Below, piece by piece: positions 5,501 through 62,431 of a stretch of 64,000 bases of DNA (position 1 is its first letter; the number at the start of each line of letters is the position of its first letter). The notes under the pieces were generated by a model. That model saw only the letters and a program-made list of their open reading frames with translations, made no database searches and was not told where the DNA came from. Both the position numbers and the translations under genes were made by a program. The stretch is taken from NCBI GenBank assembly GCA_903831085.1, contig CAIKWE010000039.1, positions 1 through 64,000 of the forward strand. Reading direction: 5' to 3'. The DNA comes from an uncultured Verrucomicrobiota bacterium (GTDB lineage: Bacteria > Verrucomicrobiota > Kiritimatiellia > Kiritimatiellales > Tichowtungiaceae).

Positions 5501-6799
5501 GCTCAGATCATGAGCCGCGAGTGCAGCGAATGCCCGACTGCCAGTGAATCCCTGCCGTCCATTGTCCGAAGCAGTGAGCATCTGCTGGAACTGATCAACG
5601 ACATTCTGGGGATTGTCCAGACGGATGTACAAGACATTGTATTGGCGGCTTCGGACTTTGATTTTTATTCCCTGCTGGATTCTGTCCGGGTGATAAGCGG
5701 GCAGAAACACCGTGGAGCTGTTCCTGTTGAAATTGTGATGGCACCGGATTTGCCGCAATTTCTCTATGCGGATAAGGGGAAAATCCGTCAGGTGCTGCTC
5801 AATCTGGTCGGCAACGCGATCAAGTTTACAAAGCAGGGGCGCGTCTGCCTGTCGGCGGGATTCTGCCGAACCGGCACCGACAACGGGTTAGTGCTGACGG
5901 TGGATGTGGAGGACACCGGCGACGGGATAGATGCAGGGCAGCTTGAACGGATATTCAATCTGTTCGAACAGGCCGGACGTGGACAGCAGTTAGGGAAAGG
6001 AACCGGACTGGGACTGCCCCTGAGCCGCCGTTATGCGCAGGCGCTGGGTGGTAATGTCATCGTGCTGCGCAGTATTCCCGGAGAGGGCAGCATCTTCCGG
6101 TTCACCTTCACGGCCCGGCAGGGCCGTTCGGAAAAAACAGGAAACGCCAAGGTGGTCCGTCGCATTGCGCCCGGACAACCCGTTCTCCACATCCTGGCGG
6201 TCGACGATGATTTAGAGAATCTTCAAATGTTGCGGTTCATGCTTGAGGGGGTCGGGTTTGCCGTTGACGTTGCAGAAAGCGGTGCCAGTGCGCTGGACAA
6301 ATGCAATGGAGCAAGCGGATTCAACCTAATCCTGATGGATAAACGGATGCCCGGCATGGACGGTATTGAAACAGTAAAACGCCTGCGAGAACTTCGCGGC
6401 GGGCGAAATATTCCGGTTATTATGGTTACGGCCAGTGAGTTGGCGGATGAAGAGCCGGGGATAGTGGACGGGTACGTGTCCAAGCCGCTGAGTCGGGATT
6501 TTCTGCTGCTGGAAATTCAGCGCCTCACCGGGGTGCAATACGAATATGATCAAGAGACGGTTGTGCCGCAGAACCAGCAGATCGTCATCGGCCTGGACGA
6601 TCTGTTGCAGATTCCGGCGGCCCAACGAGAACTATTACGGGATGCCGTCCATTCCGGAAATATCCGGCAGATGAAAAGTGTAACAAAAGAAATCGCGCGC
6701 TGTCATCCCGAACTAGCGGCCGCCTTGAGCGATCTGATCAGACACTATGATTACGATGAATTAAACCGGTTGCTTAAGCAAAACCAAGGAGAGTCCTGA
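2582..6799 (+). CDS. membrane hybrid sensor histidine kinase: CHASE, three PAS, GAF, HisKA, HATPase, REC
   Basis: A 1405-aa sensor. A transmembrane helix near residues 32-50 and a second near 330-355 enclose a CHASE domain (contains LPGIQGLGFALLIP), the presumed periplasmic ligand sensor. Three PAS/PAC modules follow at about 370-500, 505-630 and 635-755, then GAF about 765-925 and HisKA with MSHEIRTP (His961). The HATPase_c domain has N-box GNAIKF, G1 DTGDGID and G2 GKGTGLGLPLS. A receiver follows with Asp1253 in LMDKRMPGMDG, then a C-terminal tail of about 90 residues. All kinase motifs are present, so this is the probable phosphate source for the two flanking degenerate proteins. Its stop overlaps the start of the next gene (ATGA), so they are translationally coupled. 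The ligand is unknown. Confidence 0.92.
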   Translation: MTVSRKIKRMGGHSPKTKIEGVSGDGGRSGVWLIWVFLLAGLLSTGLTIWHAKSAVDLSAEKEFESVCKEICGKISDRLGAHEQILRSGAAFIEHSVGVSRQEWKFFTERQKVERQLPGIQGLGFALLIPREKLVQHIQEIRAEGFPSYQVRPEGEREIYSSIIYLEPFTNRNLRAFGYDMFSEPIRRAAMEVARDRDAAALSGKVKLVQETDQDVQVGTLMYVPVYRSGMPHETVDQRRAAILGWVYSPYRMNDLMQGILGRWDLINAQRIHLEVFDGRQIRSAALLYDSKAVGRLSHSPANMMTLQVPIVVANQNWILQFSQSVAPLTAAEYAGVWILAVAGTTITLLLARLLFMLQSTRSKAEWLARQLTGELQHTTDRLTLATKAGGVGIWDYEVINNELIWDEQMFALYGITRKQFGGAYEAWQAGVHPDDRHRGDEEIKMALRGEKEFDTEFRVLWPDGTVHDIRALAKVQHDASGRPLRMIGTNWDITVRKQAEATLSLRESYLSAILENQAGLVWLKDAESRFLAVNEAFATACGKQQASDLAGLTDLDIWPAELAEKYRKDDFAVMELRKPVMVEEQVYEQGVAKWFETYKTPVFDGQGAVIGTTGYARDITPRKQMEEALSRQIALLSNLLDSLPEIVFFKDSDGIYLGCNPFFEEFLGKSREEIIGHTDEDIFPKEIAEFFRENDRIMMAQNKARHNEEWITYPDGRRILIDTLKAPLVSADGKVIGLLGVSRDITDRKQAEDALVQQSLLQKILMDIATTYINLPLEEVDQSVQTALRNLGEFVEADRAYIFDYDFSGGICTNTFEWCRDGISPQIEALQAVPLAELPDWVETHRRGDAVYYPDVTALPPGGARDILEPQQIKSLLTIPLTHRDDCLGFVGFDSVRRHHVYSEKERTLLTLFAQMLTNIRLRRKNEAALVNATSRANDMADKAAAAAIAKTMFLANMSHEIRTPLNAVLGHAQIMSRECSECPTASESLPSIVRSSEHLLELINDILGIVQTDVQDIVLAASDFDFYSLLDSVRVISGQKHRGAVPVEIVMAPDLPQFLYADKGKIRQVLLNLVGNAIKFTKQGRVCLSAGFCRTGTDNGLVLTVDVEDTGDGIDAGQLERIFNLFEQAGRGQQLGKGTGLGLPLSRRYAQALGGNVIVLRSIPGEGSIFRFTFTARQGRSEKTGNAKVVRRIAPGQPVLHILAVDDDLENLQMLRFMLEGVGFAVDVAESGASALDKCNGASGFNLILMDKRMPGMDGIETVKRLRELRGGRNIPVIMVTASELADEEPGIVDGYVSKPLSRDFLLLEIQRLTGVQYEYDQETVVPQNQQIVIGLDDLLQIPAAQRELLRDAVHSGNIRQMKSVTKEIARCHPELAAALSDLIRHYDYDELNRLLKQNQGES

Positions 6800-7951: not shown

Positions 7952-8230
7952 ATGGTAAAACACATTGTTGTCTGGCAGATGAAAGAAAATGTTTCTGAGG
8001 AACAGAAACGGGAGATGAAGCGACTGCTGGAAGCGCTTGTCAGCCGAATTCCGAGAGTCCTCAAAATAGAGGTTGGAATTGATTCCGAGAACGAAACCAT
8101 GTCGCTCTATTCCGAATTCACCTCGAAAGAAGCTCTGGAGGCTTATCAAGCGCATCCTTCTCATCGGGATGTTGTGACTTTTGTCAGAAAGCTCGTGATA
8201 GCCCGGTCGGTTTGTGATTACACCGTCTGA
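7952..8230 (+). CDS. Dabb-family (stress-responsive A/B barrel) protein
   Basis: A 92-aa protein beginning MVKHIVVWQMKEN, typical of the dimeric alpha-beta barrel Dabb family. The family signature is a VKHIVxW-like first strand, and an HPSHxxVxxFV-like segment lies near the C-terminus (AHPSHRDVVTFV). The ATG at 7952 is chosen because GGAGCGGAGG lies just upstream and the homologous part begins there; the frame is open further upstream from 7913. It follows the signalling operon directly and probably shares its transcript. Members bind small ligands or act in stress responses; no specific reaction can be assigned. Confidence 0.8.
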   Translation: MVKHIVVWQMKENVSEEQKREMKRLLEALVSRIPRVLKIEVGIDSENETMSLYSEFTSKEALEAYQAHPSHRDVVTFVRKLVIARSVCDYTV

Positions 8231-8354
8231 TACCAAGTTCGCATGATCTTCGGTTTTTATTACCGCGCCCAGCGGACGCGGCTACAGAAAATCTTTCTCA
8301 CTGTGGGTGCGGACGGTGGCCGCGCCTTGTACCGATAATCATGCGTATTGGGTA
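8231..8354 (+). repeat. dispersed structured repeat, copy 1, filling a convergent intergenic gap
   Basis: About 104 bases (8231-8334) match, in reverse complement, 49266-49370 at roughly 85-90% by eye. This copy also has imperfect ends in inverted orientation (taccaagttcgcatgat at 8231 against atcatgcgtattgggta ending at 8354), so the whole segment can fold as a long hairpin. It exactly fills the gap between two converging genes and may terminate both. Confidence 0.75.
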
Positions 8355-49234: not shown

Positions 49235-49262
49235 GTGGAAGCGGCATCCCTGCCGCTTTATT
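49235..49262 (+). terminator. hairpin after the aminotransferase, related to the pabBC elements
   Basis: gtggaagcggcatccctgcc, then gctttatt: stem aagcggca/tgccgctt followed by a short T-rich run. It is a half-copy of the element found twice inside pabBC. Confidence 0.65.
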
Positions 49263-49265
49263 AAG

Positions 49266-49370
49266 TCGGCACAAGGCGCGGCCATCGTCCGCACCCACAG
49301 GAAGAAAGATTTCTGTAGCCGCGCACGGTGGGCGCGGTAATAAAAACCGAAGATCATGCGAACTTGGTGC
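49266..49370 (-). repeat. dispersed structured repeat, copy 2
   Basis: Reverse complement of 8231-8334. Internal arms gcgcggc/gccgcgc and caga/tctg pair, and end arms ggcacaag/cttggtgcc pair imperfectly. It occupies the convergent gap between the aminotransferase and a secreted protein gene. Confidence 0.75.
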
Positions 49371-49419
49371 CAGAGGGGTTTCTCTGCGCCCTCCAAATCT
49401 CTGCGAGGGAAAAAGATTT

Positions 49420-51993: not shown

Positions 51994-52048
51994 GGTGGAA
52001 CGCGACCGCCGGGCGCGTTCTAAGCGTGCTCGGCGATCACGCTCCACC
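51994..52048. repeat. cloverleaf-like element: outer stem with two hairpins
   Basis: Outer arms ggtgg (51994-51998) and ccacc (52044-52048) enclose hairpins aacgcg...cgcgtt (51999-52019) and agcgtg...cacgct (52023-52043). Left arm shared with 40793-40810. Confidence 0.7.
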
Positions 52049-60600: not shown

Positions 60601-60629
60601 CGTTCAAAAAAACCCTCTACGGCATTTGA
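57627..60629 (+). CDS. purL: phosphoribosylformylglycinamidine synthase, PurL with fused N-terminal PurS-like repeats
   Basis: A 1000-aa ATP-dependent FGAM synthase subunit. The first 160 residues contain two PurS-like halves, MIYRIEIGLKPGVPDARGRG and DWMLEIGFKPGVTDNVGRTA. The PurL body follows: TWSEHCSHKIFAG, ETHNSPSALDPFGGSMTGIV, GNESGVPYSRGF, TDNGAGGISCSFGEMG and the second half with VSVGGRLDRIAILDNFCWPD. The glutaminase domain is not attached; purQ lies 1.9 kb downstream. The ATG at 57627 is chosen as homology begins there (AAAAGGAATTTCT upstream); the frame is open to 57456. It overlaps pabBC by ATGA. Confidence 0.95.
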   Translation: MIYRIEIGLKPGVPDARGRGVIGRAKSALGMKIKACQTRDVYKAVANIKKSEAKAVQLGFADAVVARSALGRLKAPGSFDWMLEIGFKPGVTDNVGRTARGAMADILGRELAWEEQVYTSLQYFLKGDLTREDILHLGKDLLANTLIQTIQVFSKEEWLAAEPDLTAPIFDDHPEIKVNLIELPDNDAALMKISSDGILSLSLDEMRAIRNHYLHDDVKVHRTELGLPQWPTDVELECIAQTWSEHCSHKIFAGTVEYKDAETGEEELINSLYKTYVKASTKKVAEKIDWLVSVFTDNAGVIKFNEDLHLVYKVETHNSPSALDPFGGSMTGIVGVNRDPMGTGMGAQLVSNVWGYCLGSPFYDKEIPAGLMHPRRIRDGVHDGVIAGGNESGVPYSRGFECFDERYLGKPLVYCGTMGTLPVNVGGRPSERKEVQVGDWTVMCGGRIGKDGIHGATFSSEELRTESPAQAVQIGDPLTQRKLYEFLMEARDLGLFRCITDNGAGGISCSFGEMGKYSGGCECELKDAPLKYEGLQPWEILVSEAQERMTLAVQPECREAFEKLAKQRDVEVAFMGKYNDSGYFTVKYDGEVVASLDMDFLYETGCPKLHMKGIWKKPEIPTPEKARGGNRTKQLRQMMGRLNICSREYKSRIYDGEVKGLSVVKPFVGVNADVPSDATVMRIEYDKDRGAILAEGINPWFSDIDTYHMTASVIDEAIRRVISVGGRLDRIAILDNFCWPDPVQSDKTPDGEYKMAQLVRSNKALYDYTVAFGTPAVSGKDSCKNDSTRGGKKISIPPTLLISSIGQIDDVKKAVTMPLKEAGSLIYMVGVTKNELGASEWNRMLAEEQGNPWNYGGDAPAVDAKAALAIYRAMNKAQDEGILLSSHTPSKGGLAVGLALICMGGGLGAEIDLSKVPMVGKQKLKDDSILFSESNSRFVVSVKPENAARFEELFAGLPVAQIGTVTADKKLVVKGGKGATRIDTDLETLRKPFKKTLYGI

Positions 60630-62431
60630 TGAACGTTCTTCTTCAGCACGGAAACGACTGGCTTCGCTTCTCGGAGCCGGTCGAAGTGCTGACGGCCCGT
60701 ACGGCAGGCGAAGTTTTCCAGGCATTGGAAAAAATCGAAAAGAGCGGGCTTTGGGCCGCCGGTTTTATTTCCTACGAAGCGGCCGGCGCGTTTGACGAGG
60801 CTCTAAAAACTCATGCGCCGGGTGGCTTGCCGCTTTTACAATTCGGGCTTTTTGAGAAGCCAAAGGTAGGGACGTCTCTCCGAGACGTCCGAGGATGGCT
60901 GGGACAGCCGTCCCTACCCAACTACCAATTGGGAAACTGGACGCCGTCGGTGACGCGAGGCGAATATGCGCAGGCGATTGCGGCGATCAAAGAGCATATT
61001 GCGGCAGGCGACACCTATCAGGTCAATTATACCTTCCGGCTGAATGCTGAGTTTTCCGGTTCGCTGTTCGACTTTTTCTGTGATCTGGCCGAAGCCCAGC
61101 AGGGCCGCTATGCCGCCTTCATTGAAACCGATGAGTTTGCGATTTGCTCTGCTTCGCCGGAACTTTTCTTTGAGCTCAAAGACGGCGTGATCGTTTCCCG
61201 TCCGATGAAGGGCACCCTGCCGCGCGCCTTGACGGCGGAGGCCGACCGCGCCGTCGCCGAGGCACTGAAGAATTCGGCGAAGGATCGTGCGGAAAATATC
61301 ATGATCGTCGATATGATCCGCAACGACATCGGGCGCATTGCCGAGGCCGGTTCGGTCGAAACGCTCAGCCGATTCGATGTCGAAAAATATCCGACCGTCT
61401 GGCAACTGACTTCGACGGTGCAGGGCAGGGTGGCTGCGGCTTCCAGCCGCAGCAATCAGCGGCAGGATGCCGCTGCCACGTTGGGAGATTTGTTCAAAGC
61501 ATTGTTTCCCTGCGCGTCGATCACCGGTGCGCCGAAGGCCAAGACGATGGAGATTATCCAGGGATTGGAAACTTCGCCGCGCGGCATTTATACCGGCGCG
61601 ATTGGCTTCATCGCGCCGGACGGCACGGCGCAGTTCAGCGTCGCTATCCGCACGGCGGTGATTCAGAACGGCAAGGCGGAATACGGGATTGGCGGCGGCA
61701 TCGTGTGGGATTCTGATGCGGACGCCGAATATAACGAGGCGCTTTCCAAGGCACGGATTCTGACGCGGCGTTTTCCGGAATTCCAATTGTTGGAAACCAT
61801 GTTGTACGAACCGGGGCAGGGCATCTTTTTGCTGGAGCGCCACCTGAATCGGCTGGCCTGTTCGGCTGAGTATTTTGGTTTTATTCTAAATGCCGGTGCG
61901 GTTCGTGAACAGCTGTGTAGTTTGACGTTTGCTGAACCGATGCGTATCCGTCTGTTGGTGGACCGAGCCGGACTTTTTAAGGTGGAAGCGGCATCCTGCC
62001 GCTTGCAGAGGCTGGAAGCCTCTGCCACTTTAGCAATCGCGAAAGAGCCGGTCGATTCGGGGGATGTATTTTTCTATCACAAGACGACGAACCGCGCGGT
62101 GTATGAAAGGGCGAAAGCGGACTTCCCCGATGCCGACGACGTTCTGCTGTTCAATGAGCGTGGCGAAGTAACCGAGAGTTGCATCGCCAATGTAGTGGTC
62201 GAGCTGGACGGACGAAAAGTTACGCCGCCGATTTCGTGTGGTCTTCTCGCGGGGACATTCCGTGACGAACTGATCGCGAAGGGCGAGATAGAAGAGCGGA
62301 TCATCACACTCGCCGACCTGAAACGGGCAAAAGCCGTCTGGCTGATAAATTCTGTTCGCAAATGGAGAAAAGTCACTTTGTCGCAGAATTGTTGGCCGCA
62401 AAAGGGCGCAGAGAACTCAAAAAATCTATGA
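60629..62431 (+). CDS. pabBC: fused aminodeoxychorismate synthase component I and aminodeoxychorismate lyase, with repeat insertions
   Basis: A 600-aa folate enzyme. The PabB part covers about 1-390: GEYAQAIAAIKEHIAAGDTY, PELFFELKDGVIVSRPMKGT, MIVDMIRNDIGRI, ASITGAPKAKTMEIIQGLET, GIGGGIVWDSDADAEYNEAL. The PabC part covers about 395-590: LLETMLYEPGQGIFLLERHL, catalytic Lys in FFYHKTTNRAVYE, TESCIANVVVELDG, GLLAGTFRDELI. It makes 4-aminobenzoate from chorismate with glutamine or ammonia from a PabA-type partner. Three cloverleaf-like elements (60865-60918, 61430-61479, 61982-62028) and two short palindromes are inserted in frame. The last 25 residues also run into repeat-like DNA. It lies between purL and purQ. 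Confidence 0.93.
   Translation: MNVLLQHGNDWLRFSEPVEVLTARTAGEVFQALEKIEKSGLWAAGFISYEAAGAFDEALKTHAPGGLPLLQFGLFEKPKVGTSLRDVRGWLGQPSLPNYQLGNWTPSVTRGEYAQAIAAIKEHIAAGDTYQVNYTFRLNAEFSGSLFDFFCDLAEAQQGRYAAFIETDEFAICSASPELFFELKDGVIVSRPMKGTLPRALTAEADRAVAEALKNSAKDRAENIMIVDMIRNDIGRIAEAGSVETLSRFDVEKYPTVWQLTSTVQGRVAAASSRSNQRQDAAATLGDLFKALFPCASITGAPKAKTMEIIQGLETSPRGIYTGAIGFIAPDGTAQFSVAIRTAVIQNGKAEYGIGGGIVWDSDADAEYNEALSKARILTRRFPEFQLLETMLYEPGQGIFLLERHLNRLACSAEYFGFILNAGAVREQLCSLTFAEPMRIRLLVDRAGLFKVEAASCRLQRLEASATLAIAKEPVDSGDVFFYHKTTNRAVYERAKADFPDADDVLLFNERGEVTESCIANVVVELDGRKVTPPISCGLLAGTFRDELIAKGEIEERIITLADLKRAKAVWLINSVRKWRKVTLSQNCWPQKGAENSKNL
60714..60734. repeat. in-gene palindrome in pabBC encoding FQALEK
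   Basis: ttttccaggcattggaaaaaa, TTCCAA/TTGGAA family. A second one, ttccaattgttggaa, at 61781-61795 encodes FQLLE. Confidence 0.7.
60865..60918. repeat. cloverleaf-like element 1 in pabBC (GTAGGGACG type)
   Basis: Perfect 10-base outer arms ggtagggacg/cgtccctacc enclose hairpins gacgtctctccgagacgtc and ggctgggacagcc. It is 54 bases (18 codons), in frame, in the linker before the chorismate-binding core. Confidence 0.85.
61430..61479. repeat. cloverleaf-like element 2 in pabBC (GTGGC type)
   Basis: Outer arms gtggc/gccac; inner hairpins tgcggcttccagccgca and agcggcaggatgccgct. Translated as AAASSRSNQRQDAAAT-like low-complexity sequence between QGRV and LFKALFPC. It is homologous to element 3 in reverse orientation. 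Confidence 0.85.
61982..62028. repeat. cloverleaf-like element 3 in pabBC (GTGG type, reversed)
   Basis: Outer gtgg/ccac; inner aagcggcatcctgccgctt and gcagaggctggaagcctctgc. Translated as VEAASCRLQRLEASAT in the lyase domain. Confidence 0.85.

What the first reader, a model, noticed from the sequence alone, without database searches (positions are those of the whole stretch)
60865..62028. Three cloverleaf-like palindromic elements inserted in frame in pabBC
Seen: elements at 60865-60918, 61430-61479 and 61982-62028 each have outer complementary arms enclosing two hairpins. The second and third are the same family in opposite orientation. All keep the reading frame and add low-complexity peptide in places where PabB/PabC proteins normally have short linkers. 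Known: Rickettsia palindromic elements insert in frame in genes. Inference: an analogous, separately evolved element family in this lineage.
Basis: partly seen in the sequence, partly recalled or inferred. Interest (0 to 1): 0.8.

Follow-up and report, generated by a model that had tools for sequence, protein, structure and literature searches.

The report
Transposase and hairpins inside working genes
Three small DNA hairpin repeats sit in frame inside a bacterial folate-synthesis gene; two of them belong to a repeat family whose transposase is itself lodged, in frame and without stops, inside the gene of a replication-restart helicase, and related transposases sit the same way in many other housekeeping genes.

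Summary
The three elements are real and in frame. They are not an RPE-like family of their own: each is a REP plus inverted REP (REPIN), GTGG…CCAC (e2, e3) or GTAG…CTAC (e1). In-frame REP dimers in genes are published, also for Verrucomicrobia. Against shorter relatives e1 and e2 add about 7-13 aa; e3 adds almost nothing.

The unexpected part lies elsewhere in the genome. The only RAYT (Y1 HUH transposase) found sits between two REPINs of the e2/e3 family, with no stop, inside priA, between its 3'-binding and winged-helix domains. At least 17 of 58 genomes searched (own included) carry a RAYT there; others have REPIN-like or plain linkers. PriA_3primeBD occurs once in each of 16 carriers tested. 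Related RAYTs lie in frame in cca, xseA, radical-SAM, mvaD, hypF, cmoB-like, leuS, carB, hsdR and Eco57I/MmeI genes of several phyla; 38 of 80 named hits have at least 100 aa of open frame on both sides. Catalytic motifs are kept, dN/dS is low, and RAYT lineages largely sort by host gene. My searches of open-access papers listed no report of this residence. Translation of the fusions and mobility are inferred.

The parts
60866..60917 (+). e1: GTAG-type REPIN (GTAG, hairpin with TCC loop, spacer, hairpin with GGA loop, CTAC), 52 nt, read in frame as VGTSLRDVRGWLGQPSLP
   Evidence: a half-element pattern of this type has 18 matches at 15 places in the genome against 0 in the reversed-pattern control
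61430..61479 (+). e2: GTGG-type REPIN, 50 nt, in the Chorismate_bind part, read in frame as VAAASSRSNQRQDAAAT
   Evidence: (71.2 bits; it is one of the model's own sequences); G012 has the same type at this site
61982..62028 (+). e3: GTGG-type REPIN, 47 nt, in the Aminotran_4 part, read in frame as VEAASCRLQRLEASAT
   Evidence: (also one of the model's own sequences); same type at this site in G009 and G012
60626..62431 (+). host gene pabBC (aminodeoxychorismate synthase component I fused to aminodeoxychorismate lyase), 601 aa, frame open through e1-e3
49235..49298 (.). weaker, degenerate REPIN-like element at a gene end or between genes, partly overlapping a repeat of about 115 nt
   Evidence: (35.8 bits, E 2e-6)
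51995..52047 (.). REP-like dimer of a further type, between genes

Best explanation
e1-e3 are REPINs (REP plus inverted REP), non-autonomous mobile hairpins moved in trans by a RAYT transposase like TnpA_REP subclass 2.4 / RAYT group 4. SHOWN: the e2/e3 family flanks the only RAYT found in this genome; that REPIN-RAYT-REPIN unit lies in frame, without a stop, inside the only priA found; the same arrangement recurs in many host genes and genomes. INFERRED: the RAYT copies or inserts REPIN DNA as single strand; insertions that break a frame are removed by selection, while those in a linker and in frame survive as a translated peptide. The GTGG type is nearly free of stops in all six frames, which makes survival likelier. 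The RAYT exploits the same property: flanked by stop-free REPINs it persists as an internal domain of an important protein, is expressed with it, and cannot easily be lost by inactivation because that would break the host protein. It may leave by in-frame deletion, giving the REPIN-like or half-REP linkers seen in relatives. For e1 (GTAG type) no cognate RAYT was found in this 94.6% complete assembly.
For: Anatomy and family. One Y1_Tnp match in the genome, C20:5511-5750, in a 968-aa frame with PriA domains on both sides; flanking REPINs at C20:5144-5194 and 5761-5811 (both are among the model's sequences). PriA_3primeBD has one match in each of 16 RAYT carriers tested. R1 matches are more numerous in the four same-genus genomes with the priA-A RAYT (35, 6, 22, 25) than in the ten others (0-18), one-sided p 0.007. 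Embedded RAYTs: H-x-H in 54 of 54 (NH[VIFLM]H in 52), tyrosine in 53 of 54; dN/dS 0.036-0.162 in the printed pairs with finite dS. Hairpins with a GT[AG]G foot within 150 nt on at least one side in 61 of 83 embedded RAYTs, both sides in 48, against 37 of 1660 control windows. GTGG elements: 5.6 of 6 frames open against 4.75 shuffled, 0 of 300 as high. 16 of 39 listed places in this genome lie in frame in Pfam-supported genes.
Against: No transposition, translation or enzyme activity was measured. Counting in-frame insertions by a spanning frame is biased: frame-breaking ones would not span. The other 23 places lie between genes or at gene or contig ends; only four flank pairs were tested for a split gene, two of them uninformative. 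GTAG elements are no more stop-free than shuffles (3.67 against 3.69, 177 of 300 as high). One embedded RAYT (G003) has lost the tyrosine. 22 of 83 embedded RAYTs lack a GT[AG]G hairpin nearby; in the nine of these that I read there are hairpins with other feet. G008 and G009 have many R1 matches without the priA-A RAYT. R1 was built on this genome, which favours its count, and genomes are related. Most genomes are drafts. dS is saturated in most pairs. In 7 of 26 named frames Y1_Tnp itself did not pass E 1e-5.
Confidence: 0.82

Rival explanations
1. A domesticated PriA-RAYT fusion with a job for the host: a ssDNA-processing enzyme tethered to the replication-restart helicase.
For: priA RAYTs form two lineages (A and B), each present in two families of the order; between families RAYT and PriA identity are alike (for example 0.67 and 0.65, G000-G031) and the RAYTs are under purifying selection.
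Against: State at the site (A, B, REPIN-like, plain, unclear; labels by hand) needs 15 changes on a 30-row PriA tree, near the shuffled mean of 16.7; at least 13 genomes read have no RAYT there; the same kind of RAYT sits in unrelated hosts.
Confidence: 0.2
2. The insert is removed after transcription or translation (intron-like splicing, protein splicing or ribosome bypass), so the host protein is made without it.
For: Hosts include genes that should be essential (leuS, priA; recalled); bypassed hairpins and inteins exist elsewhere (recalled).
Against: The frames have no stop and keep phase, which removal would not need; Pfam finds only Y1_Tnp in the insert of the ten frames; Rfam finds nothing in six priA or leuS carrier loci; low dN/dS across the RAYT suggests its protein sequence is selected.
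Confidence: 0.08
3. One reading: a separately evolved family analogous to Rickettsia palindromic elements, without link to REP/RAYT.
For: In-frame palindromes in housekeeping genes; for e1 no cognate RAYT was found.
Against: GT[AG]G…C[CT]AC feet, dimer form, and a RAYT flanked by the e2/e3 family.
Confidence: 0.05
4. Ordinary coding sequence or conserved RNA structure at these sites, not inserts.
For: At e3, and in some relatives at e2, there is a segment of similar length without the element.
Against: Near-identical elements lie outside genes elsewhere in the genome; relatives lack them or carry other REP-like sequences at the same sites.
Confidence: 0.02

Closest known systems
REPIN / BIME / REP dimers (Bertels and Rainey 2011 PMC3116915, seen only as a search listing; Di Nocera et al. 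2013 PMC3733652, sections read)
   Same: GT[AG]G foot, two hairpins in inverted arrangement, dispersed, partly in frame inside genes, including uvrA and DNA ligase in Opitutus terrae
   Different: Here the listed copies are few (39 places), the GTGG type is nearly stop-free in six frames, and three sit in one gene
TnpA_REP subclass 2.4 = RAYT group 4 (Quentin et al. 2018 PMC6006769, section 13 and passages read)
   Same: NH[IFV]H, WQ and Y-I-x-x-N-P motifs, 'double foot' GT[AG]G…C[TC]AC REPs, REPs inserted in frame even within the transposase gene, scattered over phyla
   Different: Table length 194 aa for the subclass; [quoted passage not shown] Here the gene lies inside a host gene as an internal, stop-free domain, repeatedly and often at the same site
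Rickettsia palindromic elements (RPE)
   Same: Palindromes in frame in housekeeping genes
   Different: RPE-4/-6 are CGTC-tagged, a class with no associated transposase (Di Nocera 2013); here the feet are GT[AG]G and a transposase is present for the GTGG type
Inteins with homing endonucleases (recalled); IStrons (PMC4227781, passages read)
   Same: A mobile enzyme lodged in protein-coding genes, with occupied and empty alleles
   Different: No splicing module found; the insert appears to stay in the protein

Membership tests
REPIN (REP + inverted REP) | Conserved GT[AG]G tetranucleotide at the foot of each hairpin, the two in inverted orientation | tested here: met
   e1-e3 sequences; scanner and R1
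REPIN (REP + inverted REP) | Multiple dispersed copies in the genome | tested here: met
   GTGG type: 16 strong places (best E about 2e-11 or lower), 11 of them behind the model's own sequences, and four weaker at E 7e-7 to 0.009 (only 150 of 5566 candidates were scored). GTAG type: 18 half-element matches at 15 places, control 0
REPIN (REP + inverted REP) | Cognate RAYT in the genome flanked by the same REP: GTGG type (e2, e3) | tested here: met
   C20 RAYT with REPINs at both ends
REPIN (REP + inverted REP) | Cognate RAYT in the genome flanked by the same REP: GTAG type (e1) | tested here: not met
   No second Y1_Tnp match in the 94.6% complete assembly; e1 is called a REPIN by anatomy only
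REPIN (REP + inverted REP) | Shown to be mobilised by the RAYT | not testable with these tools
   Only occupied, partial and empty sites among relatives
TnpA_REP subclass 2.4 / RAYT group 4 | HUH motif NH[IFV]H, WQ and YIxxNP motifs | tested here: met
   A3 alignment of nine; NH[VIFLM]H in 52 of 54, H-x-H in 54, Y[IVL]xxN in 53
TnpA_REP subclass 2.4 / RAYT group 4 | Y1_Tnp family; homology to solved TnpA_REP | tested here: met
   Pfam PF01797; PDB 4er8 best hit E 2.3e-5, other chains named transposase close behind
TnpA_REP subclass 2.4 / RAYT group 4 | Placement in the group by a tree with reference members | not tested
   Group suggested from the published motif table and REP feet only
TnpA_REP subclass 2.4 / RAYT group 4 | Stand-alone gene (table length 194 aa) | tested here: not met
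   Own RAYT lies in a 968-aa PriA frame. The enzyme is therefore called 'like' this group, not filed as an ordinary member
Rickettsia palindromic element | CGTC tag (RPE-4/-6) and no transposase | tested here: not met
   GT[AG]G tags, RAYT present
Intein | Protein-splicing domain around the enzyme | tested here: not met
   No such Pfam domain in the 10 embedded frames

The most novel reading that the evidence does not exclude
These RAYTs are an intein-like class of selfish domains without splicing: transposases that live permanently as translated, stop-free internal domains at fixed linker sites of essential proteins (PriA, LeuS, CarB and others), with host-site-bound lineages, rapid gain, loss and exchange at the site, and a cloud of in-frame REPINs elsewhere in the proteome. 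A bold extension is that they re-enter the same site in a homing-like way.
Probability: 0.4. Interest if true: 0.92.

Novelty: new variant of a known kind. Interest (0 to 1): 0.8.

Why it matters
How palindromic elements come to sit in frame inside important bacterial genes is open for the Rickettsia elements, whose CGTC class has no known transposase. Here family, transposase and occupied and empty sites occur together. The transposase itself lives inside important proteins, which suggests a way for a mobile enzyme to persist: be translated as part of something the cell cannot lose. It would also mean that at least some long 'fusion' RAYTs set aside in surveys are a real and widespread state, and that some annotated housekeeping proteins carry a transposase domain.

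Tried and rejected
RPE-like independent family: rejected on feet, dimer form and RAYT. Known RNA element: Rfam gave only two tRNAs in the window and nothing in six carrier loci. Phage-borne source: 16 pattern stretches in viral contigs, none a RAYT relative by tblastn. Net-insertion borders in pabBC: attempted by protein alignment; one search read one strand only and missed 18 of 30 loci, repeated on both strands; no target duplication could be defined because flanks have diverged and lengths differ. Solo-REPIN formation by recombination between the two flanking REPINs: suggested by the linkers of G025 and G009, not tested. Whether priA RAYTs move horizontally or are lost repeatedly from an old allele: not resolved. 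Structure prediction was not run. The priA count of 17 is a minimum: not every priA was read. The trees are quick searches with many weak branches.

Full report
THE ELEMENTS. e1 (60866-60917), e2 (61430-61479) and e3 (61982-62028) lie in one open frame, 60626-62431, a PabB-PabC fusion. Each reads foot, hairpin with TCC loop, spacer, hairpin with GGA loop, complementary foot; the feet are GTAG/CTAC in e1 and GTGG/CCAC in e2 and e3. Each folds better than all of its 200 shuffles. Because the unit is an inverted dimer, the reverse strand has the same architecture, and a covariance model built on ten GTGG sequences (e2 and e3 among them) hits both strands.

THE FAMILY IN THIS GENOME. The genome held (G000) has 2.14 Mb in 60 contigs, 94.6% complete. 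R1 finds 16 strong GTGG-type places (best E about 2e-11 or lower); 11 of them gave the model its ten sequences, so five are independent; four weaker places have E 7e-7 to 0.009. Only 150 of 5566 first-look candidates were scored, so this is a minimum. A GTAG half-element pattern has 18 matches at 15 places against 0 for its reversed control. In the stretches fetched for these hits plus the window, an architecture scanner finds 29 elements and none in the reversed sequence. Of 39 listed places, some of them partial, 16 lie in frame in genes with Pfam support: pabBC three, priA two, and one each in tilS, a DFP (coaBC-like) gene, a Mur ligase, a PDDEXK (addB-like) gene, prmC, ligA, a radical-SAM/Methyltransf_30 gene, uvrA, a B12 radical-SAM gene, a pseudouridine synthase and tatD. 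The other 23 lie between genes or at gene or contig ends, many within ten bases of a long frame. The count is biased toward in-frame cases, since a frame-breaking insert has no spanning frame. Four flank pairs were tested for a split gene: two have different families on the two sides, two have a domain on one side only.

SITES IN RELATIVES. In 30 pabBC loci, own included, e3's type is also at its site in G009 and G012, and e2's in G012. Other genomes carry other REP-like peptides or none that I recognised at the same three places. Between fixed anchors G000 has 23 aa at each site. e1: 13-16 aa in 21 of 28 relatives, 20-38 in 7 (G011 is cut by a contig end). e2: 10-15 aa in 16 of 29, but 23-42 in 9, some of them (G009, G003) without a REP that I could see. 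e3: 21-27 aa in 27 of 29. So against shorter relatives e1 and e2 lengthen the protein by about 7-13 aa, less than their own 16-17 codons, and e3 hardly at all: host bases seem to have been lost with or after insertion. E. coli PabB is 11 aa shorter at e2 in the alignment.

THE TRANSPOSASE. Y1_Tnp has one match in G000. It lies in a 968-aa frame with PriA domains on both sides: 3'BD at 18-113, Y1_Tnp at 264-340, helicase from about 430, C-terminal domain to 963. REPINs of the e2/e3 family flank it at C20:5144-5194 and 5761-5811. No stop separates RAYT from PriA, so a RAYT made from this gene carries the rest of PriA unless processed. In the alignment with 4nl4, 29 residues (123-151) lie between the two aligned blocks; in G000 246 do.

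THE SITE ACROSS RELATIVES. Fifty-eight genomes were searched, own included: same genus, same order and same class. At least 17 have a RAYT at this linker, all in two families of the order. Thirteen further linkers were read: six with REPIN-like or half-REP peptide, five plain, two unclear, labels by hand. PriA_3primeBD is found once in each of 16 of the 17 carriers (G034 not tested); nine are at least 90% complete and at most 5% contaminated. On a quick PriA helicase tree of 30 rows the state changes at least 15 times (shuffled mean 16.7; as low in 32 of 200): it is close to unstructured by PriA ancestry. Yet the RAYTs there form two lineages.

OTHER HOSTS. Stop-to-stop frames around RAYT matches in relatives gave 57 frames, 54 with at least 100 aa beside the RAYT: priA 17, cca 10, radical-SAM 9, xseA 9, mvaD 2, Eco57I-type 2, tatD 2, and one each of fic, hypF, cmoB-like. 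All eleven frames scanned have Y1_Tnp and a host domain; in TatD and Fic the RAYT is C-terminal. A scan of named genomes kept the best 80 of 469 relatives: 38 have at least 100 aa of open frame on both sides, 7 upstream only, 3 downstream only and 32 neither; some are cut by contig ends. Of 26 scanned with Pfam at E 1e-5, 24 have host domains and 19 Y1_Tnp; in the other seven the RAYT rests on tblastn. Hosts include LeuS three times, CarB, HsdR, Eco57I, MmeI, adenosine deaminase, UxaC, SNF2 and GH38 proteins; in several I saw a host domain on one side only. Record labels are Verrucomicrobiota, Chloroflexota, Bacteroidota, Pseudomonadota, Planctomycetota, Nitrospirota and others. In the three LeuS carriers the editing-domain match stops at profile position 143-146 of 185, shortly before the insert, and is the only strong match in each genome; two weak ones per genome lie in frames of 512-930 aa; completeness of these genomes was not told. 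All ten cca carriers tested have a second PolyA_pol gene, so there the single-copy argument does not hold.

SORTING BY HOST GENE. In a quick tree of 74 RAYT domains, 11 labels need 12 changes (least possible 10; shuffled mean 46.6; as low in 0 of 200). In a wider, faster tree of 146 rows, 30 labels need 41 changes (least possible 29; shuffled 91.1), with hsdR, mmeI and Eco57I hosts hit by several lineages and stand-alone RAYTs mixed in. Relatedness of genomes contributes to this clustering. Divergence of priA-A RAYTs is near that of PriA between families and somewhat larger in most pairs within the genus, which fits old residence with repeated loss. A and B types in close relatives (G000 and G008: PriA part 87% identical, RAYTs 55%) fit replacement. 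I could not decide between them.

FUNCTION KEPT. H-x-H is present in 54 of 54 embedded RAYTs (NH[VIFLM]H in 52) and the tyrosine in 53; G003 has histidine there. dN/dS is 0.036-0.162 in printed pairs with finite dS (RAYT identity above 0.55), but dS is high or saturated, so only 'well below 1' is safe. GTGG elements (15 sequences) are open in 5.6 of 6 frames (4.75 in shuffles, 0 of 300 as high); nine GTAG elements show no such excess. R1 matches are more numerous in same-genus genomes with the priA-A RAYT (one-sided p 0.007; not corrected for ancestry; three genomes with unread priA counted as lacking it; R1 built on G000).

KNOWN AND NEW. In-frame REPs and REP dimers in genes are published (PMC3733652). 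The RAYT fits subclass 2.4 / group 4 by motifs and REP feet (PMC6006769, section 13 and passages). Eight searches of an open-access library listed no report, that I saw, of RAYTs residing inside host genes; several returned far more papers than the 10-20 listed, so this is weak evidence of absence. The closest statement is that unexpectedly long proteins were discarded as fusions or annotation errors. The 2017 RAYT classification cited in PMC6006769 and PMC8049555 was not read. I therefore rate the elements as members of a known kind and the residence of the transposase as a new variant.

ORGANISM.

Noticed in passing
window 9896-61795 (11 places), e.g. 61781-61795 in pabBC: A separate palindrome TTCCAA-N3-TTGGAA: 11 in the window against 0.05 expected, 379 in the genome against 2 for the control, at least one in 53 of 58 genomes, 1349 in G048; often spaced 31-32 nt in the listed places of G048 and G057; one lies near the PabB-PabC junction. 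Unexplained.
   Followed up: partly
window 8223-8335 and 49266-49377: An inverted pair of copies of about 115 nt, 91% alike, the second overlapping a degenerate REPIN-like element.
   Followed up: no
L058:2406-2469 (G000 C24:22389-22452): A further REP type (GTAGACGCGACG…CGTCGCGTCTAC) in frame in tilS; a similar peptide (NVDATPSSR) flanks priA-B RAYTs of relatives.
   Followed up: partly
L185, L258, L262, L184: priA-B RAYTs carry a REP-like peptide (NVDATPSSR or similar) inside the transposase domain, upstream of the HUH motif.
   Followed up: no
L182, L179, L242, L183, L313, L319, L341, L346, L348: RAYTs in radical-SAM, hypF, leuS, carB and a Flavobacterium Eco57I-type gene have hairpins beside them with feet other than GT[AG]G, such as GTACC/GATAC.
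   Followed up: partly
G047 and G049: Genomes of other families in the class have many R1 matches (43 and 13, both strands counted) and may hold larger REPIN populations.
   Followed up: no
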